DNA from: Gammaproteobacteria bacterium
GTDB taxonomy: Bacteria > Pseudomonadota > Gammaproteobacteria > Arenicellales > JAOTYS01
Direction of reading: 5' to 3'
Assembly: GCA_029861795.1 (NCBI GenBank)
Contig: JAOTYS010000009.1
Coordinates: 1-28,934 of the forward strand
DNA length: 28,934 nucleotides
Shown here: piece by piece, positions 7,450 to 28,934 of the stretch
How positions within the stretch are numbered: position 1 is the first letter of the stretch
Layout: the number at the start of each line of letters is the position of its first letter
The notes under the pieces: generated by a model
Databases searched by the model: none
Told to the model about the DNA's origin: nothing
What the model saw: the letters and a program-made list of their open reading frames with translations, nothing else
Made by a program: the position numbers and the translations under genes

Positions 7450-9225
7450 GTGGCTACCGACGAAAAGATAAAACGCAAGCTCGCCGCCATCTTGTGTGCA
7501 GATGTGGTGGGTTACAGTCGTCTTATGGGTGCCGATGAGTCAGGTACCCTTGCGCGACTCAAGGCACATCGCAAAGAGTTAATCGATCCGACCATCGCTA
7601 AGCACGACGGACGCATGGTGAAGCTCATGGGAGACGGTGCGCTGGTGGAGTTTTCCAGTGTGGTGGATGCGCTCGCCTGCGCCGTTGATGTGCAGCGTGG
7701 GATGACCGAGCGCAATCACAATGAACCTTCAGAACAGCGCATCGAGTTTCGCATCGGCATCAATCTCGGTGACGTGATTATCGAAGGTGATGACATCTAT
7801 GGTGATGGCGTCAATGTGGCGGCGCGACTGGAAGGGCTTTCCGATCCTGGGGGTATCTGCATCTCGGAATCGGTGCGCAGTGCCACGGGTAACAAGCTAC
7901 CGATCGACTATGAATTTATGGGCGAACAGGAGGTCAAAAACATCGCCGAGGCGGTGCGAGCGCATAGGGTATTGATGGAATCAGAGGAAGTGGCTAACAC
8001 GACCGTAACAGACAAACCTGAGTTGGAATTGCCTGACAAACCCTCTGTCGCGGTGCTTCCCTTCGCCAACATGAGCGCCGATCCGGATCAGGAGTTCTTT
8101 GCGGACGGCATCACTGAGGACATCATTACTGAGCTATCCAAGTTCCGCTCGCTGTTTGTGATCGCGCGTAACTCGTCTTTCGCCTTCAAGGGACGATCTA
8201 TTGACGTTAAGGATGTGAGCACCAAGCTTGGTGTGCGCTACGTGGTGGAGGGGAGTGTCCGGCGTGCGGGTAATCGTGTGCGCATCACCGCACAGCTGAT
8301 CGATGCCGTCGAAGACAATCACCTCTGGGCCGAGCGCTATGACCGCGACCTGGAGGATATCTTCGCGGTGCAGGACGAGGTGACGCACACAATCGTGACA
8401 ACCATTGAACCGCACCTCGCCAGCACCGAGCGTCAGCGGGCCCGGCGCAAGCCCACCGAAAGCCTCGGCGCTTGGGAACTCTATCAGCGCGGTCTCTGGC
8501 ACCTTTATCAAAACAACGCCGAAGACAGCACCAGGGCGCTGGATTTCCTGCAGAGTGCCATTGACCTCGACCCTACCTTTGCGTCAGCCCACGCGGGCCT
8601 CGCCTATGCGCTTTATTACCATGTCGTTCTGGGATACTCACAGGATCGCAGCGGCGATCTCGCGCGCGCGCTCGATGCCGGGAAGACTGCGGTGATGCTC
8701 GACGAAAACGATCCCTTCGCCCATGTGGCGCTGGGTCGCGTATACACGATAAAGGGTGAGCACGACACGGCGATTGCGGCCTGCGACAGGGCGATCGCCC
8801 TCAACCCAAACTATGCCAGCGCCTACATGGGACGCGCACACTCGCTTTGGCAGGCCGGCCGCCCAGCAGAGGCGCTCCCGTCCCATGACGAGGCCATGCG
8901 ACTGTCTCCGCGCGATCCGCTGATGTGGGCCTTCGTGGCAAGCAAGGCCATCGCCCTGATTCTGCTCGGCCGTTACGACGAGGGGTTGGATTGGGCCCGC
9001 AAGGCGCAAAGGCAACCGAGCACGGCGATCTGGGCTTTTATGCCCGAGGTCAGCGCGCTCGGGCTGCTCGGCCGGATCGACGAGGCGCGTGCCGCGCTGG
9101 AACGGGTGAAGCGAATCAAACCAGACGTCAGTTGCGCCTTCGTCGACCAAGCGCTGGCGTTTACACATGCGACCGACCGTGATCATTTTGTGAGCGGTCT
9201 GGTCAAAGCGGGCCTGAAGGAATAA
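7450..9225 (+). CDS. Class III adenylate cyclase with FlgO/TolB-N-like and TPR domains (copy 1)
   Basis: The product has 591 residues from a GTG at 7450, with only a weak ribosome binding site. Residues 1-180 form a class III cyclase domain. The metal Asps are D18 and D62, adenine recognition is by K58 and D115, and the transition-state pair is N122 and R126. These spacings match those known for mycobacterial Rv1625c, so ATP-to-cAMP activity is expected in a homodimer. Residues about 195-315 form a TolB N-terminal/FlgO-like domain (KPSVAVLPFANMS, FFADGITEDII, VVEGSVRRAG). From about 358 on there are 4-5 TPR repeats, ending in the family tail VKAGLKE. No membrane helix is present, so it is cytoplasmic. 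It stands alone, 3.2 kb from the next paralogue. Confidence 0.9.
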   Translation: MATDEKIKRKLAAILCADVVGYSRLMGADESGTLARLKAHRKELIDPTIAKHDGRMVKLMGDGALVEFSSVVDALACAVDVQRGMTERNHNEPSEQRIEFRIGINLGDVIIEGDDIYGDGVNVAARLEGLSDPGGICISESVRSATGNKLPIDYEFMGEQEVKNIAEAVRAHRVLMESEEVANTTVTDKPELELPDKPSVAVLPFANMSADPDQEFFADGITEDIITELSKFRSLFVIARNSSFAFKGRSIDVKDVSTKLGVRYVVEGSVRRAGNRVRITAQLIDAVEDNHLWAERYDRDLEDIFAVQDEVTHTIVTTIEPHLASTERQRARRKPTESLGAWELYQRGLWHLYQNNAEDSTRALDFLQSAIDLDPTFASAHAGLAYALYYHVVLGYSQDRSGDLARALDAGKTAVMLDENDPFAHVALGRVYTIKGEHDTAIAACDRAIALNPNYASAYMGRAHSLWQAGRPAEALPSHDEAMRLSPRDPLMWAFVASKAIALILLGRYDEGLDWARKAQRQPSTAIWAFMPEVSALGLLGRIDEARAALERVKRIKPDVSCAFVDQALAFTHATDRDHFVSGLVKAGLKE

Positions 9226-12422: not shown

Positions 12423-14213
12423 GTGAATAGTGACTCTTATGATCGTAAGCTTGCGGCGATCCTACACGCCGATGTAGCCGGTTACAGCCGTCTGATGGGT
12501 ATCGACGAGCCTGGCACCCTGGCGCGACTGAAGGCGCACCGCAAAGAGTTGATCGAGCCGAGCATTGCTTCACACCGTGGCCGCACGGTGAAGTTGATGG
12601 GGGACGGCGCGCTGGTGGAGTTTGCCAGCGTGGTGGAAGCGCTCGCTTGCGCGGTAGAGGTGCAACGCGGGATGACCGAACGCAATAATGATGAACCCGC
12701 GGAGCGGCGTATCGAGTTCCGTATCGGGATTAACCTCGGGGACGTGATCATCGAAGACGATGACATTTACGGTGATGGGGTAAATGTGGCGGCGCGACTC
12801 GAGGGCTTAGCCGATACTGGCGGTGTTTGCATATCCGGAACGGTTTACGATGCCGTTGGGAGAAAACTGCCGGTTGAGTATGAGTTCATGGGCGAGCAGG
12901 AGGTAAAGAACATCGTGGAACCGGTGCGTGCCTATCGGGTGTTGGTGGGCGCGGAGAAGGTCAGGTCTTCTTCATGGAAAAAAACCGCGCTAGAACTTCC
13001 CGACAAGCCTTCAATAGCGGTTCTTCCATTCACTAATATGAGCGGTGATCCTGAACAGGAATATTTCAGTGATGGTATCACTGAAGATATCACTACGGCA
13101 CTTTCAAAATACCGATGGTTCTTAGTGGTCGCCCGTCATACGACCTTCACCTATAAGGGTCGCGCGCTGGACATAGTGGAGGTTGGCCGTCAGCTTGCCG
13201 TCCGCTACATCTTGGAAGGAAGCGTGCGTAAGGCGGCTAACCGCGTCCGGGTTTCCGCACAACTAGTTGAAGCAGCGAACGGCAATCATCTTTGGGCCGA
13301 AAGTTATGATCGCGATCTCGCCGATATCTTTGCGGTACAAGACGAGATCACGCAGGCGATCATTGGTGAATTGACGCCGCAGTTTCTCACCGCTGAACTT
13401 CAGCGCTCTCGTCGCAAGCACGACACAAATCTAGATGCCTGGGATCTGGTGATGCGCGGCCGCGAGCACTTGTGGCGCATCAACAAGGATGACAATCTGA
13501 AGGCACAGCAGTTCTTTGATGCGGCAATCGAGCGTGCCCCCGACAGCGGATTGGGGCAAAGCGATCTGGTGCAATCATATTTATGGCAGTTAATTTTCGG
13601 ATGGGCGGATGACCGCGCAGGAACCGTAGAGCGAATGGCCGCGTCGTCAGCACGCGCAATCGCGGCTGATCCCAACGATTCCTATGCTCTGGCAGGCGCT
13701 GCAATCGCCAAATGCTTTGAGGACCATGCGAGCGAAGGTGTCGAATTGGCGCGCAAGGCGGTCGCCATAAATCCGAATCTGGCTTTGGCTCATGCTGCAC
13801 TTGGATTCTCGCTCGCGTTTGCGCCACGAAACTTTGAGGATCAATACGGTGAAGCGATTGAATCAGTGGAGCGGGCAATACGCCAGAGCCCGCGCGACCC
13901 CATGATGGGGACAATGTTAGGGAGTCTCGGCATCGCCTATTACCTCGCCGGACGATATGAGGACACAAAGCGCACTGCGGACCGACTGATCATGGAACAA
14001 CCGGAGATGCCGACAGGTTACCGTCAACTGGCCGCTAGCCTTGCGCAGCTCGGCCGAATCGATGAAGCAAGTGCGGTGGTCTCTAGGCATATATTGCGAC
14101 TGATCCCCGGTCACACTGCAACCCAATCTGGCCAGCAACTGCCCTTCGGTAGTAATGAGGAAGCCCGTCGTCATTGGGTCGAGGGGCTGGTCAAAGGCGG
14201 GCTCCCGGAGTAG
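12423..14213 (+). CDS. Class III adenylate cyclase with FlgO/TolB-N-like and TPR domains (copy 2)
   Basis: The product has 596 residues from a GTG at 12423 and begins MNSDSYDRKLAAILHADVAG. The cyclase domain (1-178) keeps all catalytic positions: D17 and D61 for metal, K57 and D114 for the base, N121 and R125 for catalysis. A FlgO/TolB-N-like domain begins at about residue 192 (KPSIAVLPFTNMSGDPEQEY, FSDGITEDITTAL). TPR repeats begin at about 361 and the tail is VKGGLPE. The TPR part shares little sequence with copy 1, while the cyclase part is very similar. Six nucleotides after its stop begins a truncated further copy, so it was once followed by another gene of the same kind. Confidence 0.9.
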   Translation: MNSDSYDRKLAAILHADVAGYSRLMGIDEPGTLARLKAHRKELIEPSIASHRGRTVKLMGDGALVEFASVVEALACAVEVQRGMTERNNDEPAERRIEFRIGINLGDVIIEDDDIYGDGVNVAARLEGLADTGGVCISGTVYDAVGRKLPVEYEFMGEQEVKNIVEPVRAYRVLVGAEKVRSSSWKKTALELPDKPSIAVLPFTNMSGDPEQEYFSDGITEDITTALSKYRWFLVVARHTTFTYKGRALDIVEVGRQLAVRYILEGSVRKAANRVRVSAQLVEAANGNHLWAESYDRDLADIFAVQDEITQAIIGELTPQFLTAELQRSRRKHDTNLDAWDLVMRGREHLWRINKDDNLKAQQFFDAAIERAPDSGLGQSDLVQSYLWQLIFGWADDRAGTVERMAASSARAIAADPNDSYALAGAAIAKCFEDHASEGVELARKAVAINPNLALAHAALGFSLAFAPRNFEDQYGEAIESVERAIRQSPRDPMMGTMLGSLGIAYYLAGRYEDTKRTADRLIMEQPEMPTGYRQLAASLAQLGRIDEASAVVSRHILRLIPGHTATQSGQQLPFGSNEEARRHWVEGLVKGGLPE

Positions 14214-14291: not shown

Positions 14292-14605
14292 ATTTGCGTT
14301 CGTCTGCGGCACTAAGTTTTGATGCATGAAGTTATGGGGTAGATGTTGTTGGTATGGATCCCGCCTATCGCCGACAGAATACACACTTCGGGCGCTCGCA
14401 GCTGAAGAATTTTTCCACTCGGCCTGATCGATAAGATCCGGCTCGTTGAATGCGCAACACAATGGTATCGATGGTTCGGGTTAAGGTGACTGGCTTAGCG
14501 CCGTATCGGATAACGATGACGAGAACTGCTTGACATCGCGCGGCGTCGTTGTGGAGTCTGGGCGAAGGCCTTCATCACAGGGGCCGCGACTTTCTTTGTA
14601 AATCC
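14292..14605. other. Gene-poor stretch after the truncated cyclase
   Basis: This is 314 nt between the stub and the next convincing gene. A 60-codon minus-strand ORF (14280-14462) has no recognisable domain and no ribosome binding site; I do not call it a gene. No terminator, tRNA or transposase is visible. The sequence probably arrived by the same rearrangement that removed the downstream cyclase. Confidence 0.4.
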
Positions 14606-16348: not shown

Positions 16349-16519
16349 TGGCGCGCGAGTTTACGTAGATAATCTCCGGGACCACCCACAGTTTAGAACT
16401 CGAGGAGCGGAGTTTCATCGTCTTGTGCAATTCCAGTTTTTCACGTACGTCATTACCATTTGTGGTATGGGTTCGCGCTTCGATACCAAGGACCACAATC
16501 AGCTCGGCTTTCTAAATAC

Positions 16520-16537
16520 AGATTTATTTGCCGCCTC
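16520..16537 (-). repeat. Partial reverse copy of the AATAAATCTGT motif
   Basis: On the minus strand this reads GGCGGCAAATAAATCTGT, matching the element at 9296-9313 at nearly every base. It sits in the convergent gap after the carboxypeptidase-regulatory-like gene. The gap (16349-16578) contains nothing else I recognise. Confidence 0.4.
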
Positions 16538-16578
16538 TAAACAGCGATTAATACCGGTAACTAGATCCCCTCCTAACT

Positions 16579-17250
16579 TTAGTTGTCCAGTCCGTAACGT
16601 TGTTTGGCCTCTTCGTACGAAAATGCCATTCCGTTGTTATCAAAGGCGAAGTAGGCAAGCGAGCTATGACGCTGTGAATAGTCGAATTTGAGATCGCCGA
16701 TGCCCTTCATTTTGCCTGAGGCCACTTCGGCTTCATAAAAGGTCCACCCTTCCGGCAATACGGTGCGTATATGCACCTCTTTATCGGTTACGGGATTACG
16801 GATGGGTTCTGTGACCGCAGTCACTACTTCGGGGACCGAAAGCCGAGCGGTACGTTTTTTGACGTCCCAATCGAATTCAATCGGTAAAAATAGAGGGTCG
16901 TGGAGGTGCTCGACGATGATGCTAAAGATTTGAAATATGGTGCCCTCAGGTTGACCCTCACCCGATAGAATCTTGAAGATTGCGTCGCGCTGCTCCTCGG
17001 TGGTGCGTTCTTCCAATATCGGTTGCATGTGGCCATCACCGTGGTGGATCGCACGAGGAAAATAAAAAGTCGCGGCGATGACCAGATCATCAAGTCGCAC
17101 GTCGCCGTAATGACCTTCATCGACCTTCATTGCGACGACGCCATCACAATGTCCTTGAGAAGGTGGGGCCATCGCCTCACATGGGCAGCCGTGATCGCAA
17201 CTACAGTATTCGAGCCATTTGCCTTGTAGAAACCAATGTGAATCTGTCAT
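16579..17250 (-). CDS. DUF1326 domain protein
   Basis: The product has 223 residues from the ATG at 17250; an upstream in-frame start at 17337 would add 29 residues of low-complexity character. The N-terminus carries the DUF1326 signature: W-x-L-Q-G-K-W-L-E-Y-C-S-C-D-H-G-C-P-C-E, then GHCDGVVAMKVDEGHYGDV. The Cys cluster (CSCxxGCPC plus GHC) could bind metal or iron-sulfur. The rest is mostly beta strands (AATFYFPRAIHHGDGHMQPIL, FDWDVKKRTARLSVP). No biochemical function is established for the family as far as I know. The region upstream holds REP elements. Confidence 0.8.
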   Translation of the reverse strand: MTDSHWFLQGKWLEYCSCDHGCPCEAMAPPSQGHCDGVVAMKVDEGHYGDVRLDDLVIAATFYFPRAIHHGDGHMQPILEERTTEEQRDAIFKILSGEGQPEGTIFQIFSIIVEHLHDPLFLPIEFDWDVKKRTARLSVPEVVTAVTEPIRNPVTDKEVHIRTVLPEGWTFYEAEVASGKMKGIGDLKFDYSQRHSSLAYFAFDNNGMAFSYEEAKQRYGLDN

Positions 17251-17344
17251 GGGAGAACCCCCCTCGTTTGATGTGGCCGGCGGAGTGCTTACTTCGCAAA
17301 TGATGCCATTAGGCCAACTAAGTCTCATTGTCGCCAAGTGTGAT

Positions 17345-17406
17345 GTACGCCTAAAGAGGCGTACCTACAAACTCGTTTTCTATTGTAGGTTCGCCTTCAG
17401 GCGAAC
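17345..17406. repeat. Inverted pair of REP elements
   Basis: The left element is on the minus strand: arms 17345-17351 and 17358-17364, with head CTAC at 17365-17368. The right element is on the plus strand: head GTAG at 17385-17388, arms 17389-17395 and 17400-17406. Both palindromes are perfect over 7 bp. The heads face each other across 16 nt, an arrangement resembling a REPIN doublet. The sequence family is the same as at 1-88 (GTAGGTNCGCC...GGCGNAC). Confidence 0.7.
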
Positions 17407-17498
17407 TCTAGGGCTCGACGATATTGATTATTCACCACTACACACCCCTGAACAAACCATCATTCTGCGGTACATAAATCCGTTCGCGTTAGCGCGTG

Positions 17499-17696
17499 TC
17501 AGGCGGTAACCGAGATAATGTGCGCTGGGGCTGCGAATTCCACCGATCCCTCTTCCTGAATCAACGAGGCCAACTCCCTCGGTGCTTCCTGCAGCAACTG
17601 TTCGTACTCTTCATCGTTGATCGAGTCGGCAAGAGTCCAACCCTTGATGTCAGTGAATATCCAAGCTTCAAAAGATTGTGTTACACCGTCCGCCAA
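17499..17696 (-). CDS. Small acidic ORF of unknown function
   Basis: The ORF has 65 codons with a TTG start, overlapping the end of the preceding minus-strand ORF by 16 nt in another frame. The product is acidic (DSINDEEYEQLLQEAPREL) with aromatic residues (FEAWIFTDIKGWTL) and ends AAPAHIISVTA. No family is recognised. The amino acid composition looks protein-like, unlike the opposing Cys- and Arg-rich plus-strand frame. It may be translationally coupled to the upstream ORF or be the frameshifted second half of one gene. Confidence 0.4.
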   Translation of the reverse strand: MADGVTQSFEAWIFTDIKGWTLADSINDEEYEQLLQEAPRELASLIQEEGSVEFAAPAHIISVTA

Positions 17697-17884
17697 AGAT
17701 TGAAGAGTCGATGCAACACGCTCGGTGTAGCTTCACGCTGGGACATCGGTTTTGACACCGGTTGTCCGGACTGGGACTGGTTGGGGTGCTGCCGCCGCTC
17801 CGCGTCGATGGCTGTGTGCGCTGCGGCAACTAACCAGTTGTACGGGCCCATCGGGGTTCCAAATTTGTTGGAGTCAAAAGTCAT
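17681..17884 (-). CDS. Small ORF of unknown function, divergent to the giant gene
   Basis: The ORF has 67 codons from an ATG at 17884 preceded by AGAGGA about 7 nt upstream, a usable ribosome binding site. The product starts MTFDSNKFGTPMGPYNWLVA with an amphipathic N-terminal part and a polar Gln/Ser-rich middle. No family is recognised. It is transcribed away from the 2,103-residue gene across a 193-nt gap rich in hairpins. Confidence 0.45.
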   Translation of the reverse strand: MTFDSNKFGTPMGPYNWLVAAAHTAIDAERRQHPNQSQSGQPVSKPMSQREATPSVLHRLFNLWRTV

Positions 17885-17969
17885 CGTCTTGTCCTCTGTT
17901 TAGCGGTTAGGTTAAGTGCCTGTTGGCTGACGGGCATTGTTGACTGCGCCCGTGAAATCCCCGGAGACC

Positions 17970-18044
17970 CGTCGATAAATCGACGATTTTTATCAATAAA
18001 AAATCATTAAAAGTGATAAACTGCTGACGAATCAGCAGTTTTTT
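17970..18044 (+). promoter_or_regulatory. Two consecutive hairpins with T-tracts in the leader of the giant gene
   Basis: Hairpin 1: CGTCGA (17970-17975), loop TAAA, TCGACG (17980-17985), then ATTTTTA. Hairpin 2: AAACTGCTGA (18018-18027), loop CGAA, TCAGCAGTTT (18032-18041), continuing to a T-run through 18044. Between them the sequence is strongly AT-rich, with TTTATCA and TGATAAA as a further inverted pair. Hairpin 2 has the form of an intrinsic terminator on the plus strand. No plus-strand gene lies just upstream, so the pair may attenuate the giant gene or insulate it from upstream read-through. Confidence 0.5.
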
Positions 18045-18064
18045 CGAGCTCAACCCATTGGTGT

Positions 18065-18070
18065 AGGAGG
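18065..18070 (+). promoter_or_regulatory. Strong ribosome binding site of the giant gene
   Basis: AGGAGG lies 7 nt before the GTG at 18078, a consensus Shine-Dalgarno at good spacing. It fixes the start of the giant protein and is far stronger than the sites of the other cyclase genes. Confidence 0.8.
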
Positions 18071-18077
18071 AGCAAGG

Positions 18078-21000
18078 GTGGGTTTACTTCGGCTGAATCT
18101 CCTCGGTCGCTTCGAAGCACGACTGCCCTCGGGTGAAGTGCGCGCCCTGCCTACCCGTAAGGCCGAGGCGTTGCTTGCCTATCTGGCGTTAGCGCCCGAC
18201 AAGCCTCATTCCCGGGAACGCCTGACAGGCCTAATGTGGAGTGACCGCAGCGAGGAACAGGCGCGCAATTCCCTGCGTCACGCGTTGAGCGCCCTGAGAA
18301 AGGCCTTGGATGGTCTAGACCCATCGCCGCTTATAGTCGAGCGGAGTTCCGTCACCGTCAACTCTGGAGAGATCGAAGTGGACGCGCTCGAACTCCAGCA
18401 CCTCACTCAGCAAAAGGAGCCCAATGCACTCGCTCGGGCGACAGCGTTATATCGCGGTGAGTTTCTTGAGGGCATGGTGATCAAAGATCCAGCCTGCGAG
18501 GAGTGGTTGTCAGCGGAGCGGGATCGGTGTCGCCGAATGGCCGTCAATGCGCTGGCACATTTGATAGCGCATCAACGCGAGGCCGGTGAGATCGATGCGG
18601 CGATTGAGACCGGTGAGCGGCTCGTAGTGCTCGATCCATTGCGTGAATCGGCTTGGCGTGAGCTCATGCGAGCATACGCTGAAACAGGAGAACGTAACCA
18701 AGCGCTCAAGGTTTATAAGCGTTGCTGTGAAGTGCTCGCAAGTGAACTTGGAGTCGAGCCCGAGGCGGAGACATCAGAACTTGACGCGACTATCCGAAAT
18801 GGCGCCGTCGCCACAAAGCCACCGGCTGCGATACCCGATTCCACGATAGCTGTCGCCATTCAAAGTTCCGAAGCCGGTCCTGCGTGTCCGCAGCTCGTAC
18901 GCTCAGAGAGACCTTCTGTGGTCGTGCTCCCAATTGTCAGTCTCGGTACTGAATCGGAGCAAGACTATTTCGCCGATGGTCTGACCGAAGACATCATCAT
19001 AAGCCTTGCACACTATCGGGAGTTGTTCGTCATCGACCAACAGTCCGCGTTCGCCTTTCGTGAGCAGGGATCAGATGCAGAGAGTTTCGCCCGTGGCTTG
19101 AGCGTCGACTATCTAACCAAGGGTAGCGTTCGCAGATCCGGCAGCAAGATCAGAATCTCGATGCAGCTGATTGAAGTCGCAACAGGTAGAACGGTATGGG
19201 CGGACCGCATGGACCGGGAGTTCAGCGATCTTTTCGTAATGGAGGACGAGGTTGTGAGCAAGATTGCATCGAGCCTCGTCGACCATATCGAGGACGCAGG
19301 TCGCACCCGAGCCGCGAGCAAACTTCCCGAAGACATGACAGCCTTTGAGTATGTGCTCAAGGCGCGCAGAGACGCGCTTAGTTATGACGCTGAGGAGAAC
19401 TTAACCGGGCGTCGTGGGCTGGAGGAGGCGATTGCACTTGATCCTGAATATGCCGGCGCATATGCATATCTCGCCTTGAGCTCTTTTATGGAGTTTGACT
19501 CGTCATGGTGCGAATCGCGGCGAGAAGCGCTTGAGCGCGGCGTCACGCTGGCTCGTAAAGCCGTTGCCCTGGATGAGTTTGACGCCAATGCCCAGGTGGC
19601 GATGGGTTGGGCATGTCTGCATCAGAAAAAATTCGATCTCGCCGAAGCCCACCTCGATCGAGCCATCGAATGCAATCCCAATCAGTATAACGCTTATTGC
19701 ACAAAGAGCTGGCTGTTTGCGATGACGGGGCGGCCGTCCGAAGCGATGATCTGTGGTACGACTTCGTTTCGCCTCAACCCCTTGGCGCCGGATGACTGCT
19801 TGTGGTCATTCGTAGTCGCTCATTACGTGGAAAAGCGCTACCAGGAGGCGCTCGAGGTGCTGGAGCGCATGCATGACTCCAATGCCCAAACGGAAGCCTG
19901 GCGGGCGGCGTGTCTGGCCCAGTTGCAGCGAGATGACGAGGCGAGTGCGGCCGCTGCACGAGCCATCGAACTAGGCGGGGAACTCATCCGACATCAGGAT
20001 TGGCTGCTGTCTTGGCCATTCAAAAACCAACGTGACCTGGAGCATCTGATCGATGGCTTATGCAAGTCGGGTGTGCTGGAAAGACCGACGGGTACCGACT
20101 ATCTAACGTCGGCGAGTGCAACGGAAAAGCTAGGGTTGCGGGAACAAACGACGCCTCCCCACAAGTCGTCCGTTGCTGTGCCATCTAATCGATTGCCGCG
20201 AAAGCTAGCGGCCATCCTGTGTGCGGATGTTGTGGGTTACAGCCGTCTTATGGGCGCTGACGAGCCAGGCACCCTGGAACGACTCAAGATGTATCGAAGA
20301 GAGTTAATTGATCCTACGATCGCTTCGCATAACGGGCGTATCGTTAAGTTGATGGGTGATGGTGCGTTGGTCGAGTTTGGCAGTGTGGTGGACGCGCTTG
20401 CCTGTGCCGTAGAAATTCAAAGCGGTATGAAGGAACGTAACAAGGATGAGTCAGCGGAACAACGCATAGAGTTCCGCATTGGGATCAATCTCGGGGATGT
20501 GATGATCGAGGGGGATGACATTTACGGGGATGGGGTGAATGTCGCGGCGCGATTGGAAGGACTTGCTGATGAGAGCGGTATCTGCATTTCTGAATCTGTT
20601 CATATCGCAGTGGGCAACAAACTTTCTCTAGACTACGAGGATATTGGAGAGCAGTCGATTAAGAACATCGTCAAGCCAGTGCGTGCCTATCGAGTGGTGA
20701 TTGAGTCGGAGAGGCCTAAGTCTTCCTCATCGAAAACGTCAGAGCTTGAACTCCCTGACAAGCCTTCGATTGCCGTACTTCCTTTTTCAAATATGAGTGG
20801 CGATCCCGAGCAAGAATATTTCAGTGATGGCATCACCGAAGGGATTATTCTCGGTTTATCGTGGTTCTCTTCGTTGAGGGTCGTGTCCCGTCATTCATCT
20901 TTTGCATTCAAAGGCGAAAACCTTGATGTGAAAGAGATCGGCAAGCAGTTGGGTGTTGGGTATGTGGTCGAAGGTAGCGTGCGCAAGACGCCGACCTTGG

Positions 21001-24000
21001 TGCGTATCACGGCGCAACTGGTTGATACCGGAACGGGCTCTCAGGTGTGGGGAAAACGTTTTGATTCCGATATTGAAAAGATTGTTTCGCTGGAGGACGA
21101 GCTAACCCGAACTATTGTCGCGACGGTAACTGGACGCATTGAAGCCGCTGGTCAAAAGACAGCAGTCCAAAAATCCGCCAAGGACCTGCGTAGTTACGAC
21201 TATTTGATGCGTGGGATGTACCATTGTTATCGCTTTACTCGCGATGACAATCGAAAGGCCCGTGAGTTGCTGGAGCAATGCATCGATCTGGACCCCGACA
21301 ACGCTAGGGCGCACCAGGAACTCTATTGGTGCAATATAACTGATTGGATGTCGAGATGGTCGAAGCGTCTCGACGAATCATTTGAACGTGCTCGATATCA
21401 TGCTTCCAAGGCCCTCGAACTTGCCCCTGACGATTCCAACGCACAGGCGGCCTACGCTGAGTGTGCAATTTTTCGAAGGGCTTACGAAGAAGCCGAGTTA
21501 CACGTCAATCGCGCCATCGAACTGAACCCCTATAATCCAGTCGCGCTTTCCGTGGCCTGCGATGTCCACATCGCCAAAGGAAATCTGGAGAAGGCGGTAG
21601 AACTAGCAGACACCTGCTTTCGGCTCGATCCGTATCATCCCTGGAGTTCCTGGGTTTTGGGAGCGGCTTATTTTGTGGCACGGCGTTACCAGGACGCGAT
21701 CGATGCTTTCCTGACGATGCCGAATCCGGTTGACGAGGTCAACGGATGGCTCGCCGCAAGTTATCAATGTCTAGGTGATGCCGATAACGCCACAAAGCAT
21801 ATGCAGCGCTACCTGAAGATCGCCCATGAGAGCATGGTGAATCCCCCAATAACAGAGGGGGAGTGGCGGGAACAGTGGCAGCGTGTTCAACCTTACAACG
21901 AAGAAAGTACAGAGCACTTTTTTGGGGCGTTACTTAAAGCTGGATTAGCAGAACATGTTCAGTCGTCCACATCCAATACGTCTGCCGATCACCCATCCAT
22001 TGCGGTATTGCTGTTCGAGAACTTAAGCGGCGACGCGGAGCAGGAGTATTTTGCCAAAGGCATGACGAATACCATCGCTACCGAGCTATCAAGAATTCGA
22101 TCTCTGATCGTTAAATCAGCTTTTTCCTACAAGGGCGATGGACTATCGGCACAGCACGTCGCGGAGGAAATGGGTGTGGACTACCTACTCAGGGGAACCG
22201 TTCAAAGGCAAGGTGATCGGGTGCGAGTGGCTGCGGAGTTTGTCGATGGCGAGACCGGTGTTAACAAGTGGTCCGAGCGTTTCGACCGTCGGGGCAAAGA
22301 TATTCTAGAAATTCAAGACGACATTGCTCAGGCGATCGTAGCAACCCTTTGGGGATACAAAGGAAGACTTCAGGAAGTGGAGTTCCAGCGTAGGGCTCAT
22401 AAAGCAACGCGAGATTTACAAGCCTACGATTTCGTTTTGCGTGGTGTGGCGCACAAGGATCGATTTACTAAAGAAGACAACGTCAAGGCGCATGCTTGCT
22501 TCAGCAAAGCGCGCAAACTCGACCCCAGCTATGCCGACGCTGCTTCATGGCTCTCGTGGATTCACACGATGGACGCCATGATGGGTTGGTCCGAAGATCA
22601 CTCAGCTTCTTTGCGGCAAGCGATAGACGTCGCCAAGCAAGCGATCGAACTTGATAGGTATTCTGATCTGAGCCATTGGGCGCTCGCGGCCGCCTATTTG
22701 GCCAGTAGGCAGCACGATCGAGCCCTTGCGGCCTACGACGCAGCGTTGGAGCTAAATCCCAATAACGCGGACATCTTGGCGGATAGGGCAGAGGCTCTGT
22801 ACACGAGCGGTAAGGCCGACGAAGCGATCACCTGTGTTCGGCAAGCGATGCAACTCAACCCATATCATCCCGAGTGGTATCTGTGGAACCTCGGCATCGC
22901 GTATTACGTGGCCAGGCAATACACCGATGCGGTTCAAACGCTTAATCAGATGACTAACCACAATCTTGACAGTCGGCTTTACCTCGCGGCCAGTTACGCC
23001 CAATTAGGACAAATCAAGGAGGCCGAGGCGGAAACGCGGTGGATTCTCGAAATTGATTCTGGGTTTACGCTGCAGAAGCTCTCCCATACCCACATGTACA
23101 AGAATCCGGTTGATATCGAGCATTTGCTCGACGGTCTACGCAAGGCTGGGCTGGCAGAACAAACGGATACGGGATCCGAGCCCATGCAAACTCTGGATAA
23201 ACCATCCATCGCCGTACTTCCTTTCACTAACATCAGCGGTGATCCCGATCAGTACTTCAGTGATGGGATAACCGATGACATTGTTACTAACCTGTCACGG
23301 TTTCGCGATCTGATCGTCATCGCAAGCCATTCATCCTTCGCGTACAAAGGCAAGGTTGTGAACATAAAAGACGTGAGCCAAGAACTAGGCGTTCGCTATG
23401 TTCTCGAGGGCAGTGTTCAAAAGTCAAACGACCGGGTGAGGATCAACGCGCAGCTTATCGATGGTTCTACGGGCAGTCACCTGTGGGCAGAACGCTACGA
23501 CCGGCGGCTGGACGATATCTTCAAGGTGCAAGATGAAGTGGTAGAGATGATCGTCGGCACGCTTGCGTCTGGTTATGGCGGGCGATTGCGCAAAGCATGG
23601 CAACGTCAGGCACAAGGAACAAGAGCGCAGAATGCTCAGGCTTTCGATTATTTTATGCGCGGCATAGATTCGGTTAATCACTTCACCAGCAAAACTAACC
23701 GGCGCGGGAGAGAATTCTTCGAGCAGGCGATCGAACTCGATCCCAACTATGCAAAAGCCTATGGGAAGCTTGCCTGGACGCACCTTCTTGACGCCACCGA
23801 GGGGTGGACCGAAGACTATGAAGGTTCGATAGAGAAGGGCCGAATGTTCGCGACCAAGGGAATCGAGAACGACGACGGCGAGTCCTGGGCCCACTGGGCA
23901 CTGGCTGCGTACTACGCATATATGTCGCGTCATGATCTTTCCCAGTCGGAGTTCGAAAAGGCAGTCGAACTAAATCCCAATGATGCCGATGTACTGACCG

Positions 24001-24389
24001 ATGTCGGTTTCTATCTGAGCTACGCCGGCAAAGCGGAGGAGGGTCTTGAGATTGCTCGCAAGGCCATGCGACTCAATCCGCACTATCCCGAATATTACGC
24101 GGCGCAGTTAATCCAAATTTACTTTGATGCTCGTCAATACGAGGATGCGATTGCCACCTCTGAGAGCCTGCGCAGTTTTGAGACAACTTTACAATGTTTA
24201 TATCTAGCGGCTAGTCACGGCGCGTTGGGGCATACCAGCGAAGCACAGAAAGCAATAGAGCGGGTTCTGACACTCGACTCACAGGCCACGATTCAAAAGT
24301 GGACAGATGTCAAAATGGCCCCCTATAAGAACCAGGAGGATCTGGAACATCTCCGCGAAAATCTCCGCAAGGCGGGGTTGCCGGAGTAA
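18078..24389 (+). CDS. Giant SARP-BTAD / FlgO-TPR / adenylate cyclase / three further FlgO-TPR modules protein
   Basis: The product has 2,103 residues. Residues 1-90 are an OmpR-like winged helix (LNLLGRFEARLPSGEVRALP, then RKAEALLAYLAL) and about 95-240 a BTAD helical domain, the layout of SARP activators. Module 1 is 277-668 (FlgO/TolB-N-like, then TPRs). A cyclase domain spans 704-875 with D717 and D761 (metal), K757 and D814 (adenine), N821 and R825 (catalysis), all intact. Module 2 is 892-1292, module 3 is 1305-1694 and module 4 is 1706-2103. Each module ends in the family C-terminal tail (SGVLE, KAGLAE, KAGLAE, KAGLPE), so three former C-termini are now internal. No membrane helix is evident. 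It probably integrates several inputs into cAMP synthesis and DNA binding. Module 3 lacks 2-3 residues and module 4 one residue of the usual FlgO pattern. The next cyclase follows after 6 nt. Confidence 0.9.
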   Translation: MGLLRLNLLGRFEARLPSGEVRALPTRKAEALLAYLALAPDKPHSRERLTGLMWSDRSEEQARNSLRHALSALRKALDGLDPSPLIVERSSVTVNSGEIEVDALELQHLTQQKEPNALARATALYRGEFLEGMVIKDPACEEWLSAERDRCRRMAVNALAHLIAHQREAGEIDAAIETGERLVVLDPLRESAWRELMRAYAETGERNQALKVYKRCCEVLASELGVEPEAETSELDATIRNGAVATKPPAAIPDSTIAVAIQSSEAGPACPQLVRSERPSVVVLPIVSLGTESEQDYFADGLTEDIIISLAHYRELFVIDQQSAFAFREQGSDAESFARGLSVDYLTKGSVRRSGSKIRISMQLIEVATGRTVWADRMDREFSDLFVMEDEVVSKIASSLVDHIEDAGRTRAASKLPEDMTAFEYVLKARRDALSYDAEENLTGRRGLEEAIALDPEYAGAYAYLALSSFMEFDSSWCESRREALERGVTLARKAVALDEFDANAQVAMGWACLHQKKFDLAEAHLDRAIECNPNQYNAYCTKSWLFAMTGRPSEAMICGTTSFRLNPLAPDDCLWSFVVAHYVEKRYQEALEVLERMHDSNAQTEAWRAACLAQLQRDDEASAAAARAIELGGELIRHQDWLLSWPFKNQRDLEHLIDGLCKSGVLERPTGTDYLTSASATEKLGLREQTTPPHKSSVAVPSNRLPRKLAAILCADVVGYSRLMGADEPGTLERLKMYRRELIDPTIASHNGRIVKLMGDGALVEFGSVVDALACAVEIQSGMKERNKDESAEQRIEFRIGINLGDVMIEGDDIYGDGVNVAARLEGLADESGICISESVHIAVGNKLSLDYEDIGEQSIKNIVKPVRAYRVVIESERPKSSSSKTSELELPDKPSIAVLPFSNMSGDPEQEYFSDGITEGIILGLSWFSSLRVVSRHSSFAFKGENLDVKEIGKQLGVGYVVEGSVRKTPTLVRITAQLVDTGTGSQVWGKRFDSDIEKIVSLEDELTRTIVATVTGRIEAAGQKTAVQKSAKDLRSYDYLMRGMYHCYRFTRDDNRKARELLEQCIDLDPDNARAHQELYWCNITDWMSRWSKRLDESFERARYHASKALELAPDDSNAQAAYAECAIFRRAYEEAELHVNRAIELNPYNPVALSVACDVHIAKGNLEKAVELADTCFRLDPYHPWSSWVLGAAYFVARRYQDAIDAFLTMPNPVDEVNGWLAASYQCLGDADNATKHMQRYLKIAHESMVNPPITEGEWREQWQRVQPYNEESTEHFFGALLKAGLAEHVQSSTSNTSADHPSIAVLLFENLSGDAEQEYFAKGMTNTIATELSRIRSLIVKSAFSYKGDGLSAQHVAEEMGVDYLLRGTVQRQGDRVRVAAEFVDGETGVNKWSERFDRRGKDILEIQDDIAQAIVATLWGYKGRLQEVEFQRRAHKATRDLQAYDFVLRGVAHKDRFTKEDNVKAHACFSKARKLDPSYADAASWLSWIHTMDAMMGWSEDHSASLRQAIDVAKQAIELDRYSDLSHWALAAAYLASRQHDRALAAYDAALELNPNNADILADRAEALYTSGKADEAITCVRQAMQLNPYHPEWYLWNLGIAYYVARQYTDAVQTLNQMTNHNLDSRLYLAASYAQLGQIKEAEAETRWILEIDSGFTLQKLSHTHMYKNPVDIEHLLDGLRKAGLAEQTDTGSEPMQTLDKPSIAVLPFTNISGDPDQYFSDGITDDIVTNLSRFRDLIVIASHSSFAYKGKVVNIKDVSQELGVRYVLEGSVQKSNDRVRINAQLIDGSTGSHLWAERYDRRLDDIFKVQDEVVEMIVGTLASGYGGRLRKAWQRQAQGTRAQNAQAFDYFMRGIDSVNHFTSKTNRRGREFFEQAIELDPNYAKAYGKLAWTHLLDATEGWTEDYEGSIEKGRMFATKGIENDDGESWAHWALAAYYAYMSRHDLSQSEFEKAVELNPNDADVLTDVGFYLSYAGKAEEGLEIARKAMRLNPHYPEYYAAQLIQIYFDARQYEDAIATSESLRSFETTLQCLYLAASHGALGHTSEAQKAIERVLTLDSQATIQKWTDVKMAPYKNQEDLEHLRENLRKAGLPE

Positions 24390-24395
24390 AGGAAT

Positions 24396-26168
24396 ATGGA
24401 AGCTGAACGACTCCCTCGCAAACTCGCCGCCATTTTGTATACGGACGTAGTCGGTTATAGCCGTCTGATGGGCGAAGACGAGTCAGGTACCCTGGCTCGG
24501 CTCAAAGCACACCGCAAGGAACTCATCGATCCGACCATCGCGTCGCACCGTGGGCGTATGGTGAAGCTCATGGGAGATGGGGCGCTGGTGGAGTTTGCCA
24601 GTGTGGTGGATGCGCTTGCCTGTGCGGTGGATGTCCAAAGGAGTATGAACGAACGTAACAAGAATGAGTCGGCGGAACAGCGCATCGAGTTTCGCATGGG
24701 TATCAACTTAGGCGATGTCATCGTCGATGAGGATGACATCTACGGTGAGGGCGTGAATGTAGCGGCGCGATTGGAAGGCCTTGCTGATCCAGGCGGTATT
24801 TGCATTTCTGAATCTGTTCATACGGCGGCGGGTAACAAGCTCTCCCTAGATTACGAGGACATCGGCGAGCAGTTGGTTAAGAACATCGAAGTACCCGTGC
24901 GTGCCTATCGGATACGCATGGAATCAAAGGAAGAGCAGAAAGTGATCTCATCGGATAAGCCGGCGCTGGAACTCCCCGATAAACCCTCTATTGCTGTGTT
25001 GCCTTTTAGCAATATGAGTGGTGATCCCGAGCAGGAGTATTTTAGTGACGGCATCACTGAAGATCTGATTACCGCACTTTCAAGGATACGTAGCTTTTTT
25101 GTGATCGCGCGTAACACCACCTTTACCTACAAAGACAAATCTGTGTCGGTGCAACAGGTAGCGCAAGAGCTCGGCGTGCGCTATGTGCTCGAGGGCAGCG
25201 TTCGAAAAGGCGGGACAAGGGTGCGGATCTCAGTGCAGCTCGTGGATACCCAGACCGGTAGTCATGTGTGGGCGGAGCGGTACGATCGTGTGCTCGACGA
25301 TTTTTTTGTCCTACAAGATGAGCTAACCGAGACGATCGTGGGTGTGATCGAGCCGGAACTGAGCATCGCGGAACGAGAACGGGCAAAGCGCAAGGCACCT
25401 GAAAGCTTAGATGCGTGGGATCTCTACCAACGCGGTCTGTGGTATCTGTATCAATTCAGTCAAACGGACAACATGGAAGCCCGCGGCCTTTTGGAACAAG
25501 CGATTCGACTGGATCCCACGCTGGCGGGTGCTCACGCCGGTCTGGCCCATGTAGGCTATTGGGATGTGCTTTTTGGCTACAGTGACAATCCCGCAAAGAC
25601 CCTCGACGCCGCAGTTGAGGCCGCGCGGAAGGCCACGGCATTGGATCCTAAAGACCCGATGGGGCACTGGGCCTTGGGGAGTCTTCATCTGCTAAAAGGT
25701 GAGCCCGAGGAAGCGATCGCGCAATTGGAAACGGCCATTGCGTTCAACCCAAGTTATGCACACGCCCATTATCGCCTCGGGTTTGCCCTGTGGATAATGG
25801 GTCGCTATGAAGAGGCGCTTGCGCAGATCGACAATGCCATTCGCTTGAGTCCCAACGATCCCGCGTCGTGGACATTCTTCGCCGGCCGATCGCTGACACT
25901 AATTCTGCTGGAGCGTTACGAAGAGGCCGTGGAGTGGGCGAGAAAGTCGATCAGGCAACCCAAGTGTGAATTCTGGTCGCACGCTATTCTGGCATCGGCG
26001 TTAGCGCATCTGGGCAAGGTGGACGAGGCGCGAACTGAGATGGATGAAACGCTGCGGATGAACAAGAAATTTTCGCCTGAGCTTGTTCGGCAGATGTTCC
26101 GCTTTAAGCGAGAGCAGGATCTGGAGCGCTTCCTCGCGGGCCTACACAAGGCGGGTCTCACCGAATAA
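24396..26168 (+). CDS. Class III adenylate cyclase with FlgO/TolB-N-like and TPR domains (copy 3)
   Basis: The product has 590 residues from the ATG at 24396, 6 nt after the giant gene; AGGA overlaps that stop, so translation is probably coupled. Cyclase residues are D17, K57, D61, D114, N121 and R125, all conserved; small variants are YTDVVG for the usual ADVVG and YGEGVN for YGDGVN. The FlgO/TolB-N-like domain starts at about 193 (KPSIAVLPFSNMSGDPEQEY). TPRs run from about 362 (LLEQAIRLDPTLAGAHAGLAH and following repeats), ending HKAGLTE. It is cytoplasmic, with no membrane helix. Its TPR part is closest in layout to copy 1 (shared APESLDAWDLYQRGLWYLYQ-type segment), suggesting these two are sister copies. 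Confidence 0.9.
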   Translation: MEAERLPRKLAAILYTDVVGYSRLMGEDESGTLARLKAHRKELIDPTIASHRGRMVKLMGDGALVEFASVVDALACAVDVQRSMNERNKNESAEQRIEFRMGINLGDVIVDEDDIYGEGVNVAARLEGLADPGGICISESVHTAAGNKLSLDYEDIGEQLVKNIEVPVRAYRIRMESKEEQKVISSDKPALELPDKPSIAVLPFSNMSGDPEQEYFSDGITEDLITALSRIRSFFVIARNTTFTYKDKSVSVQQVAQELGVRYVLEGSVRKGGTRVRISVQLVDTQTGSHVWAERYDRVLDDFFVLQDELTETIVGVIEPELSIAERERAKRKAPESLDAWDLYQRGLWYLYQFSQTDNMEARGLLEQAIRLDPTLAGAHAGLAHVGYWDVLFGYSDNPAKTLDAAVEAARKATALDPKDPMGHWALGSLHLLKGEPEEAIAQLETAIAFNPSYAHAHYRLGFALWIMGRYEEALAQIDNAIRLSPNDPASWTFFAGRSLTLILLERYEEAVEWARKSIRQPKCEFWSHAILASALAHLGKVDEARTEMDETLRMNKKFSPELVRQMFRFKREQDLERFLAGLHKAGLTE

Positions 26169-26174
26169 GAACAT

Positions 26175-27941
26175 ATGGAACCCGAGCGGTTGCAACGCAA
26201 GTTAGCGGCCATCCTACACGCAGATGTCGTGGGATATAGCCGTCTAATGGGCGAAGACGAGTCAGGTACGCTGGCTCGGCTTAAGGCCCACCGCGAGGAA
26301 CTTATTGACCCGACTATCGCTTCGCACCACGGGCGCATGGTGAAGCTCATGGGAGATGGAGCACTCATTGAGTTTGCCAGTGTAGTCGATGCGCTCGCCT
26401 GTGCCGTTGAAGTTCAGCGTGGCATGAGCGAACGCAATCAAAGCGAACCTCAAGAGCAACGCATTGAATTTCGTATAGGGATCAACCTAGGCGACATCAT
26501 CATAGACGGGGATGACATCTACGGAGATGGGGTGAATGTAGCGGCGCGACTAGAGGGGCTTGCTGATCCCGCTGGGATCTGCATTTCAGAGTCAGTACGA
26601 ACGGCAGTAGGTAACAAGCTCCCGCTCGATTACGAGTTCATGGGCGAACAACAGGTCAAGAACATTGCCGACGCGGTACGATCCTATCGGGTTGTACTGG
26701 ACTCACAGAAAAGGACCCCAGAGACCTCGGCGGCGAAACCAAAACTGGAACCGCCAGACAAACCATCGATCGCGGTTCTCCCCTTCACCAATATGAGCCA
26801 TGATCCGGAGCAAGAGTATTTTGCCGATGGCATTGTCGAGGACATCATCACAGAACTATCGCTTGAGCCGGATCTCTTTGTCATTGCCCGTAACTCAAGC
26901 TTCGCCTACAAGGGGAAGTCGGTGGACATTCGGCAGATCGCGCGGGAACTTGGTGTGCGCTATGTGTTGGAAGGTAGCGTACGTAAGGCGGGTAACCGGA
27001 TACGGCTCAATGCGCAGTTGATCGATGCTGAGACTAATCATCATATATGGGCCGAGCGCTATGATCGCGCCATGGAGGACGTCTTCGAGATCCAGGACGA
27101 GCTGACCAACACCATACAAAACACATTGCTGCAGAAGGTTCGGGACACCAGTATTGAGCGTGCCCTGCGCCGGGCGCCGCGGGACCTGGACGCCTACGAT
27201 CACATGTTGCGCGGTTTTGGATCGTTTCTCCGTTTCGACAAAACTCACAACATCGAAGCCATACGCGAGGCCGAGGCGGCGCTCGCTATCGATCCTGATT
27301 ACGCGCGTGCACACACGATGCTGGCCTGGGCTCACCTCTATTCAGTGATGTCAGCATGGACGGACGATGCGGAGAAGGCCCTTGAGCTGGGCTATCAGGC
27401 GGCCCTCAAAGGTGTCGCTGCGGACGGACAGGATTACTGGGGTTACACCGCCCTCGGTTTTGCCGAGCTCTGCATGCATCACAACGACCGAGCCCTTGCC
27501 GCTGTTGATCGGGCGGTCGCACTTAATCCGAATAACGCCGAAGCGCACGCCGTTCGAGGAACGGTGCTCAATTTCCTCGGTCGTCCTGAAGAGGGACTAG
27601 CGGAGTTAGAGCTCGCCATGCGGCATAATCCACATTATCCCGATTGGTATCTGACTCCGGTTGGGCGCGCCTACTATTTGCTGGGGCGCTACGATGAAGG
27701 TATTCCCTATCTCGAGCGGCTGGTGAACGTCAGTCCGGAATTTGTGCCGTCACGCGCTATACTGGCGGCCAGTTACATGGCTGTAGGACGCTCCGAGGAC
27801 GCTCGAGCGCAAGTAACGGAGCTGTTGCAGGTGAACCCTACCCTTACCAGTGCACAGCTACGCACCATGGTGCCATTTAGTAAGGAAGAGGATCTCGATC
27901 GCTATTTAAATCTGTTGCGACAAGCAGGACTTCCGGAATAG
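26175..27941 (+). CDS. Class III adenylate cyclase with FlgO/TolB-N-like and TPR domains (copy 4)
   Basis: The product has 588 residues from the ATG at 26175, again 6 nt after the preceding stop. The cyclase domain is 1-178 with D17, K57, D61, D114, N121 and R125 conserved. The FlgO/TolB-N-like domain starts at about 193 (KPSIAVLPFTNMSHDPEQEY, FADGIVEDIITEL). TPRs run from about 363 (AEAALAIDPDYARAHTMLAW, AVALNPNNAEAHAVRGTVL and more), ending RQAGLPE. The TPR part differs from copy 3 but resembles giant modules 3 and 4 in layout (SAWTDDAEKALELG versus GWTEDYEGSIEKG), which hints at module shuffling. The Shine-Dalgarno is weak (AGAA), so expression probably relies on coupling. Confidence 0.9.
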   Translation: MEPERLQRKLAAILHADVVGYSRLMGEDESGTLARLKAHREELIDPTIASHHGRMVKLMGDGALIEFASVVDALACAVEVQRGMSERNQSEPQEQRIEFRIGINLGDIIIDGDDIYGDGVNVAARLEGLADPAGICISESVRTAVGNKLPLDYEFMGEQQVKNIADAVRSYRVVLDSQKRTPETSAAKPKLEPPDKPSIAVLPFTNMSHDPEQEYFADGIVEDIITELSLEPDLFVIARNSSFAYKGKSVDIRQIARELGVRYVLEGSVRKAGNRIRLNAQLIDAETNHHIWAERYDRAMEDVFEIQDELTNTIQNTLLQKVRDTSIERALRRAPRDLDAYDHMLRGFGSFLRFDKTHNIEAIREAEAALAIDPDYARAHTMLAWAHLYSVMSAWTDDAEKALELGYQAALKGVAADGQDYWGYTALGFAELCMHHNDRALAAVDRAVALNPNNAEAHAVRGTVLNFLGRPEEGLAELELAMRHNPHYPDWYLTPVGRAYYLLGRYDEGIPYLERLVNVSPEFVPSRAILAASYMAVGRSEDARAQVTELLQVNPTLTSAQLRTMVPFSKEEDLDRYLNLLRQAGLPE

Positions 27942-27947
27942 AGCTCG

Positions 27948-28934
27948 ATGGAATCCGAGCCGTTAACACGCAAGCTTGCTGCCATCCTACACGCCGATGT
28001 GGTGGGCTATAGCCGCATGATGGGGGAGGATGAGTCAGGCACGCTGGCCCGACTCAAAGCACACCGCAAGGAGTTCATCGATCCCACGATCGCCTCACAC
28101 CATGGGCGCATGGTGAAGCTCATGGGCGATGGGGCGCTCATTGAGTTTGCCAGTGTGGTGGATGCGCTCGCCTGTGCCGTTGAGGTGCAGCGTGGGATGA
28201 CCGAACGCAATAAAGATGAGCCTGAAGACCGTCGCATCGAGTTTCGCATCGGGATCAATCTGGGTGATGTGATCGTCGAGGGAGACGACATCTATGGTGA
28301 TGGGGTGAATGTAGCGGCGCGGCTGGAGAGTTTGGCCGAGCCTGGTGGTATTTGCATCTCTGAGTCGGTCTACACAGCGGTTAGTAAGAAATTGCCCGTC
28401 GACTATGAGTTCATGGGCGAACAACAGGTGAAGAACATCGAGCAACCTGTGCGCACCTATCACGCACGGGTGCGGGCTGGGGCGGAGCTGCCGAAGACCA
28501 GTGCTGTTGCCGGGTCGAAAAGAATACCGAGAACTCGACTGGCTGCGATCGCCGCTGTAGTGGTTATTGCTGTGGTTGGCATTGGGCTAGCCTGGCTTAA
28601 GCCGTGGCAACCGGATACGGAACCGGCTTCGGTCGAGCGCATGGCGTTTCCCTTGCCGGAAAAACCTTCAATTGTTGTCCTTCCGTTTGACAATCTCTCC
28701 GGAGATCCCGAGCAAGAATATTTCGTCGATGGGTTAACTGAAGACATCATTACCGATCTTACCCGCTATCCCGATTTCTTTGTCATCGCCCGTCACTCAA
28801 GCTTTGCTTACAAAAACAAAGCCGTTAAAGCACAACAAGTCGCCGAGGAACTCGGGGTGCAATACCTGGTTGAAGGCAGTATCCAACGTACGTCCAAGCA
28901 ATTCAGAATTACCGCTCAGCTGATCGATGCGCTT
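27948..28934 (+). CDS. Class III adenylate cyclase with transmembrane helix and FlgO/TolB-N-like domain (copy 5, truncated by window end)
   Basis: The frame is open from the ATG at 27948 (6 nt after the previous stop) to the last base, 329 codons, with no stop. Residues 1-175 are the cyclase domain with D17, K57, D61, D114, N121 and R125 intact. A basic patch (KRIPRTR) and a hydrophobic helix (LAAIAAVVVIAVVGIGLAWL, about 198-217) come next. A FlgO/TolB-N-like domain from about 236 (KPSIVVLPFDNLSGDPEQEY, FVDGLTEDIITDL, YLVEGSIQRTSK) continues past the window; TPRs should follow. Positive charges before the helix predict a cytoplasmic cyclase and a periplasmic FlgO/TPR part. None of the other complete copies has this helix. 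Confidence 0.9.
   Translation, partial: MESEPLTRKLAAILHADVVGYSRMMGEDESGTLARLKAHRKEFIDPTIASHHGRMVKLMGDGALIEFASVVDALACAVEVQRGMTERNKDEPEDRRIEFRIGINLGDVIVEGDDIYGDGVNVAARLESLAEPGGICISESVYTAVSKKLPVDYEFMGEQQVKNIEQPVRTYHARVRAGAELPKTSAVAGSKRIPRTRLAAIAAVVVIAVVGIGLAWLKPWQPDTEPASVERMAFPLPEKPSIVVLPFDNLSGDPEQEYFVDGLTEDIITDLTRYPDFFVIARHSSFAYKNKAVKAQQVAEELGVQYLVEGSIQRTSKQFRITAQLIDAL

What the first reader, a model, noticed from the sequence alone, without database searches (positions are those of the whole stretch)
18078..24389. 2,103-residue fusion: SARP DNA-binding head, four FlgO-TPR modules and one intact adenylate cyclase domain
Seen: one uninterrupted frame with a strong ribosome binding site encodes a winged-helix/BTAD head, four repeated modules of 392, 401, 390 and 398 residues, and a complete class III cyclase between modules 1 and 2. 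Known: SARP-TPR proteins and cyclase-TolB-N-TPR proteins exist separately. Inference: this is a multi-input regulator able to bind DNA and make cAMP from one chain. I do not recall this exact domain order and count as described.
Basis: partly seen in the sequence, partly recalled or inferred. Interest (0 to 1): 0.88.

Follow-up and report, generated by a model that had tools for sequence, protein, structure and literature searches.

The report
Giant gene switch with captured cyclase
A very large bacterial gene-control protein, built from a DNA-binding head and four sensor-like blocks, seems to have picked up a whole signal-making enzyme, most likely from a neighbouring gene, so one chain may both sit on DNA and make the messenger cAMP.

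Summary
Window 18078-24389 (+) is one open frame of 2,103 codons: SARP head (winged helix + BTAD), FlgO-TPR module, class III cyclase, three more FlgO-TPR modules. A module is a TolB-N-type domain plus TPRs, broadly like the sensor half of CadC. The exact order was in none of 271 other listed proteins (capped lists), but the kind is known: SARP-(FlgO-TPR)2-8 proteins are common, and other head + cyclase + FlgO-TPR fusions exist. Two relatives show its history: P0004 (SARP-F-F-F) and genome G230 (SARP-F-F) carry orthologous modules 1 and 2 side by side without a cyclase. The cyclase is closest to those of the five cyclase-FlgO-TPR genes in this window, above all the next gene downstream. I read it as a SARP multi-sensor regulator that captured a cyclase from the local array; the domain keeps the expected catalytic residues and is under purifying selection. 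Joint DNA binding and cAMP synthesis is inferred. New variant of a known kind.

The parts
18078..24389 (+). whole gene, 2,103 aa, SARP-F-C-F-F-F
18065..18072 (+). ribosome binding site AGGAGGAG, 5 nt before GTG
18078..18797 (+). SARP head (residues 1-240): winged helix + BTAD
   Evidence: Pfam; matches EmbR 2fez (E 1.7e-9) and AfsR 8jke (E 1.6e-6)
18912..20105 (+). FlgO-TPR module 1 (about residues 279-676, end by eye); ortholog of P0004 module 1 (85%) and G230 module 1 (49%)
20190..20687 (+). class III cyclase domain (about residues 705-870)
20763..21965 (+). FlgO-TPR module 2 (896-1296); ortholog of P0004 module 2 (78%) and G230 module 2 (56%)
21993..23168 (+). FlgO-TPR module 3 (1306-1697); no counterpart in P0004
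23202..24386 (+). FlgO-TPR module 4 (1709-2103); ortholog of P0004 module 3 (81%); modelled, pLDDT 90.6
24396..26168 (+). stand-alone cyclase-FlgO-TPR gene, same frame, 6 nt after the giant; its cyclase is the nearest relative of the giant's
26175..27941 (+). stand-alone cyclase-FlgO-TPR gene, same frame, 6-nt gap
27948..28934 (+). cyclase - probable membrane helix - FlgO gene, runs off the window
12423..14213 (+). stand-alone cyclase-FlgO-TPR paralog
7450..9225 (+). stand-alone cyclase-FlgO-TPR paralog
18018..18041 (.). perfect 10-bp palindrome (4-nt loop) just before the giant gene: operator, terminator or attenuator, undecided

Best explanation
A cytoplasmic one-chain regulator of the SARP type whose four FlgO-TPR modules are sensor or partner-binding units of the CadC/HilA kind. 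The ancestral chain was SARP-F-F(-F); in this lineage a cyclase domain, most likely copied from the neighbouring cyclase-FlgO-TPR array, was inserted in frame between modules 1 and 2, and module 3 was added. Proposed working: the SARP head binds DNA and recruits RNA polymerase; the modules set the shape or pairing of chains; pairing two cyclase domains (two giants, or a giant and a cyclase encoded just downstream) forms the active site, so the same input both drives transcription and makes cAMP near the regulator. Shown: anatomy, orthology of modules 1, 2 and 4 to P0004, expected catalytic residues, purifying selection on the cyclase. Supported: insertion rather than loss, and the local donor. 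Inferred: DNA binding, cAMP synthesis, sensing, coupling, co-transcription.
Confidence: 0.55

Rival explanations
1. The cyclase is a passenger: active or not, it is not coupled to the SARP head. The giant is an ordinary SARP multi-sensor activator and the cyclase adds to the cell's general cAMP pool or serves only to pair chains.
For: SARP-(F)n proteins without any cyclase are common (59 of 272), and related genomes hold many other cyclases (3-29 matches in 16 of 17 genomes, none in the other; 25 in G230).
Against: Expected catalytic residues are kept and the domain is under purifying selection; by the cyclase tree, head + cyclase + FlgO-TPR fusions arose more than once (P0068/P0124, P0109 and P0161 lie apart from the window group).
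Confidence: 0.22
2. The FlgO-TPR modules are protein-binding scaffolds, not ligand sensors: the chain assembles the downstream cyclases or other partners on DNA.
For: Identities fall when the TPR part is added (to module 4, window rows: 36-61% for the first 133 residues, 29-43% for the whole module), so the TPR part is the more variable; TPRs usually bind proteins (recalled); the best whole-module matches by Z are TPR proteins.
Against: CadC's comparable domain senses pH directly, though CadC is also held by LysP (PMC3096576, passages).
Confidence: 0.15
3. The full order is an assembly or strain-mixture artefact joining a SARP-F-F-F gene with a cyclase gene.
For: Tandem paralogs invite misjoins; the only contig with the full order is this one (its cluster lists three member sequences but one contig).
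Against: No exact repeat of 27 nt or more in the window; the frame is kept across both junctions; the giant's cyclase differs from the window copies at 15% or more of sites in 38 of 40 comparisons of 20-codon blocks, residues 711-870, so it is not a collapsed copy.
Confidence: 0.08

Closest known systems
SARP-(FlgO-TPR)n proteins (e.g. P0003-P0020; loci L002, L003, L009, L012-L014 from gammaproteobacterial MAGs), unnamed family
   Same: same head, same modules, one chain of up to 3,526 aa; P0004 is a direct ortholog
   Different: no cyclase
Stand-alone cyclase-FlgO-TPR proteins (this window's five genes; NCBIfam TIGR04510 is a distant relative, below cut-off)
   Same: same cyclase and same kind of module
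   Different: no DNA-binding head
CadC and HilA/EilA regulators
   Same: module similarity by fold (CadC) and by sequence model (both); one-component regulators
   Different: one module, no cyclase (recalled); the giant has no membrane helix and is far under both equivalog cut-offs
Head + cyclase + FlgO-TPR fusions: P0068, P0124 (S-C-F(-F)), P0109 (wHTH-C-F-F), P0161/P0244/P0246 (wHTH-F-C-F), L025 (S-F-C-AAA-hydrolase)
   Same: head, module and cyclase in one chain
   Different: other order or head; the cyclases of P0068, P0124, P0109 and P0161 lie elsewhere in the tree (the others were not in it)
CHD+LuxR proteins of Actinobacteria (e.g. Rv0386)
   Same: cyclase and DNA-binding domain in one chain
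   Different: LuxR head; no FlgO-TPR (recalled)
AfsR (large SARP)
   Same: SARP head, TPRs
   Different: ATPase core, no cyclase or FlgO modules (recalled)

Membership tests
SARP regulators | N-terminal winged helix + BTAD | tested here: met
   BTAD 96.7 bits over cut-off 22.1; Trans_reg_C 25.5 bits, just under 26.2; EmbR and AfsR chains matched by sequence
SARP regulators | binds DNA and activates transcription | not testable with these tools
   needs gel shift or reporter
AfsR (NCBIfam NF053617) | score over the equivalog cut-off | tested here: not met
   34.7 bits against 1430
class III nucleotide cyclases | Guanylate_cyc domain over cut-off, near full length | tested here: met
   45.7 bits over 21.9, profile 10-171 of 183; 3mr7 matched over 173 residues
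class III nucleotide cyclases | two metal Asp, substrate Lys/Asp, Asn and Arg | tested here: met
   motif positions give D717, D761, K757, D814, N821, R825; the roles are recalled
class III nucleotide cyclases | makes cAMP | not testable with these tools
   needs assay
TolB_N/FlgO-like domain | TolB-N-type fold | tested here: met
CadC | sensor domain of alpha/beta part + helical part | tested here: inconclusive
CadC | membrane helix between head and sensor (recalled); equivalog cut-off | tested here: not met
   highest 19-residue hydropathy 1.54 in the giant; 86.8 bits against 400
HilA/EilA (NF009037) | score over the equivalog cut-off | tested here: not met
   121.5 bits against 589
TIGR04510 peptide-modification cyclases | score over the subfamily cut-off | tested here: not met
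   102.7 bits against 400

The most novel reading that the evidence does not exclude
A transcription factor with its own built-in cAMP source: a DNA-bound SARP whose cyclase half-site pairs with another giant or with the cyclases encoded just downstream, giving a private cAMP signal at the promoter in a cell full of other cyclases, i.e. a covalent version of the CyaC-CycR-Clr complex.
Probability: 0.3. Interest if true: 0.78.

Novelty: new variant of a known kind. Interest (0 to 1): 0.52.

Why it matters
Bacteria with dozens of cyclases that share one messenger must keep signals apart. A regulator that carries its own cyclase would be a hard-wired answer, and the authors of the CyaC-CycR-Clr paper say that cyclase-regulator complexes could be a common means and deserve study (passages). 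The locus also shows domain capture in steps that can be read: SARP-F-F (G230), SARP-F-F-F (P0004), SARP-F-C-F-F-F (window). More broadly it points to a set of long proteins, up to eight FlgO-TPR modules, that carry a SARP, winged-helix, cyclase or kinase domain in front.

Tried and rejected
Remnant test: the stretch KSSVAVPSN before the cyclase resembles the FlgO start KPSIAVLPFSN; by DNA alignment the best score was 9.0 against a control 95% point of 9.5, so it is not evidence. Recent copying of the cyclase from a neighbour: rejected, 60-87% nt identity per 20-codon block within residues 711-870. Viral relatives: one scan of viral contigs found none, and it reaches close relatives only. RNA families and tRNAs: none reported in the window. 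Direct repeats upstream (17880-18090): none found. Promoter scan of 16200-28934: 4 sites against 8.6 expected; terminator-like sites 14 against 11.2 expected, so neither is above chance. VIA-align on the whole module listed TPR proteins in its 50 rows, which says nothing against CadC. Genome survey: 29 of 369 genomes in the class of G001 matched residues 1-881 at E 1e-40 or better and none of the 45 listed matches ran from head to cyclase, but only two candidates per genome were scored. Paper searches of the held library (open-licence papers only) showed, by titles and abstract starts, no paper on SARP- or cyclase-headed FlgO-TPR proteins. The full text of PMC2447327 is not held (abstract only).

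Full report
Observation. The 2,103-codon frame at 18078-24389 (+) is real, uninterrupted and preceded by a strong ribosome binding site. It encodes a SARP head, a FlgO-TPR module, a class III cyclase and three more FlgO-TPR modules. The cyclase matches PDB 3mr7 over 173 residues and has D717, K757, D761, D814, N821 and R825 at the expected catalytic positions (roles recalled). The window has no exact repeat of 27 nt or more.

Setting. The gene is the first of a row: three further genes follow with 6-nt gaps, all in the same reading frame. Each is a cyclase-FlgO gene, two of them complete with TPRs; the third carries a probable membrane helix (hydropathy 2.69) between cyclase and FlgO and runs off the window. 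Two more cyclase-FlgO-TPR genes lie at 7450 and 12423. Co-transcription is inferred from spacing. No genome is held for the window. The window arginase is 83% and 82% identical to genes in G230 and G109, the two genomes of one order in the collection, reached from a search of the class of a gammaproteobacterial MAG, so the host is probably a relative of these.

How common. Three protein searches listed 272 distinct proteins including the query (only the best 120 of 215, 4,198 and 679 hits were listed each time). By domain order from my S/F/C profiles (F and C matches under 30 bits and head matches under 85 bits were dropped; winged-helix and kinase heads are not in these profiles): 59 are SARP followed by two to eight FlgO-TPR modules; 173 have the cyclase as their first profiled domain (CF, CFF, CFFF, CFFFFF or CFCF); one, the window itself, is SFCFFF. 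SARP + cyclase + FlgO-TPR occurs in P0068 (SCFF) and P0123, P0124 (SCF). Winged helix-F-C-F was checked by Pfam in P0161, P0244 and P0246 (the fourth FCF, P0213, was not); P0109 is winged helix-C-F-F. Among 79 SARP loci from named genomes (the best of 136 relatives), L025 (an alphaproteobacterial MAG) has S-F-C-AAA-hydrolase and L059 has S-C-F with a cyclase that Pfam does not recognise. Some other long members list a protein kinase domain. So the exact order is unique in what I could search, and the kind is not.

How it arose. P0004, from another contig, is SARP-F-F-F: its head is 79% and its modules 85, 78 and 81% identical to the giant's head and modules 1, 2 and 4. G230 has SARP-F-F: head 54%, modules 49 and 56% to modules 1 and 2. 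A tree of 62 modules keeps these pairings (SH-aLRT 99-100 for the three window/P0004 pairs and for G1 with G230_1; G2 and G230_2 only share a six-row set at 96 with three first modules of other SARP proteins). In both relatives modules 1 and 2 are neighbours without a cyclase, so gain of the cyclase in the window's line is simpler than two losses. Module 3 is also extra relative to P0004. The six window cyclases group together, SH-aLRT 99, among 58 cyclases, apart from those of P0068, P0109, P0124 and P0161. In a careful 25-row tree the giant pairs with gene 24396 (89/89) and the five G230 cyclases included fall in a separate group (100/100), while the grouping of all six is unresolved (34/58). 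Synonymous distance is lowest to 24396 (1.06; the others 1.9, 2.45 or saturated), with dN 0.13-0.18 throughout. I conclude that a cyclase of the local array was the likely source, long enough ago for many synonymous sites to have changed, and that selection has kept it since.

How it may work. Class III cyclases need two catalytic domains for an active site and SARPs bind DNA as pairs (both recalled). A single cyclase per chain therefore implies pairing of two giants or of a giant with a downstream cyclase. The modules, which diverge far more than the cyclase, would be the inputs. The published CyaC-CycR-Clr complex of Sinorhizobium meliloti shows that a cyclase and DNA-binding regulators can form one signalling unit amid 28 cyclases (PMC10463352, abstract and passages). 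The giant would be a covalent form of this idea. This last step is inference.

Verdict. A real, well-supported domain fusion with a readable history; new variant of a known kind; mechanism untested.

Noticed in passing
window 17970-18044: Upstream of the giant: a hairpin at 17970-17985 listed as terminator-like on the + strand, and a perfect 10-bp palindrome at 18018-18041 (listed on the - strand; by eye its T-run on the + strand ends 33 nt before the start). The stretch 17940-18080 folds better than all 200 shuffles (z -2.8), but terminator-like sites in the region are not above chance.
   Followed up: partly
window 24387-27950: Four successive genes are in one frame, each separated by a stop codon and two codons, so loss of a stop would fuse them; chance of three same-frame joins is about 1 in 27.
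   Followed up: partly
window 27948-28934: Here a probable membrane helix lies between cyclase and FlgO domain, so the same kind of module may be used outside the cytoplasm, as in CadC.
   Followed up: partly
window 7450-28934: Cyclase domains of six copies stay 73-85% identical while full-length FlgO-TPR modules are 28-52%: selection or gene conversion on the cyclase.
   Followed up: partly
P0003 (3,526 aa): SARP head with eight FlgO-TPR modules; SARP-(F)n proteins grow in steps of about 400 residues.
   Followed up: partly
P0142, P0214, P0215, P0232, P0233: Proteins with two cyclase domains in one chain (C-F-C-F); in P0215 and P0232 the first cyclase looks partly decayed by eye.
   Followed up: no
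window 17681-17884 (-): Small reading frame (about 67 aa) read by eye, divergent from the giant gene.
   Followed up: no
window 14549-16348: Protein with a hydrophobic stretch near its N-terminus (by eye) and four carboxypeptidase-regulatory-like domains beside the cyclase genes.
   Followed up: no
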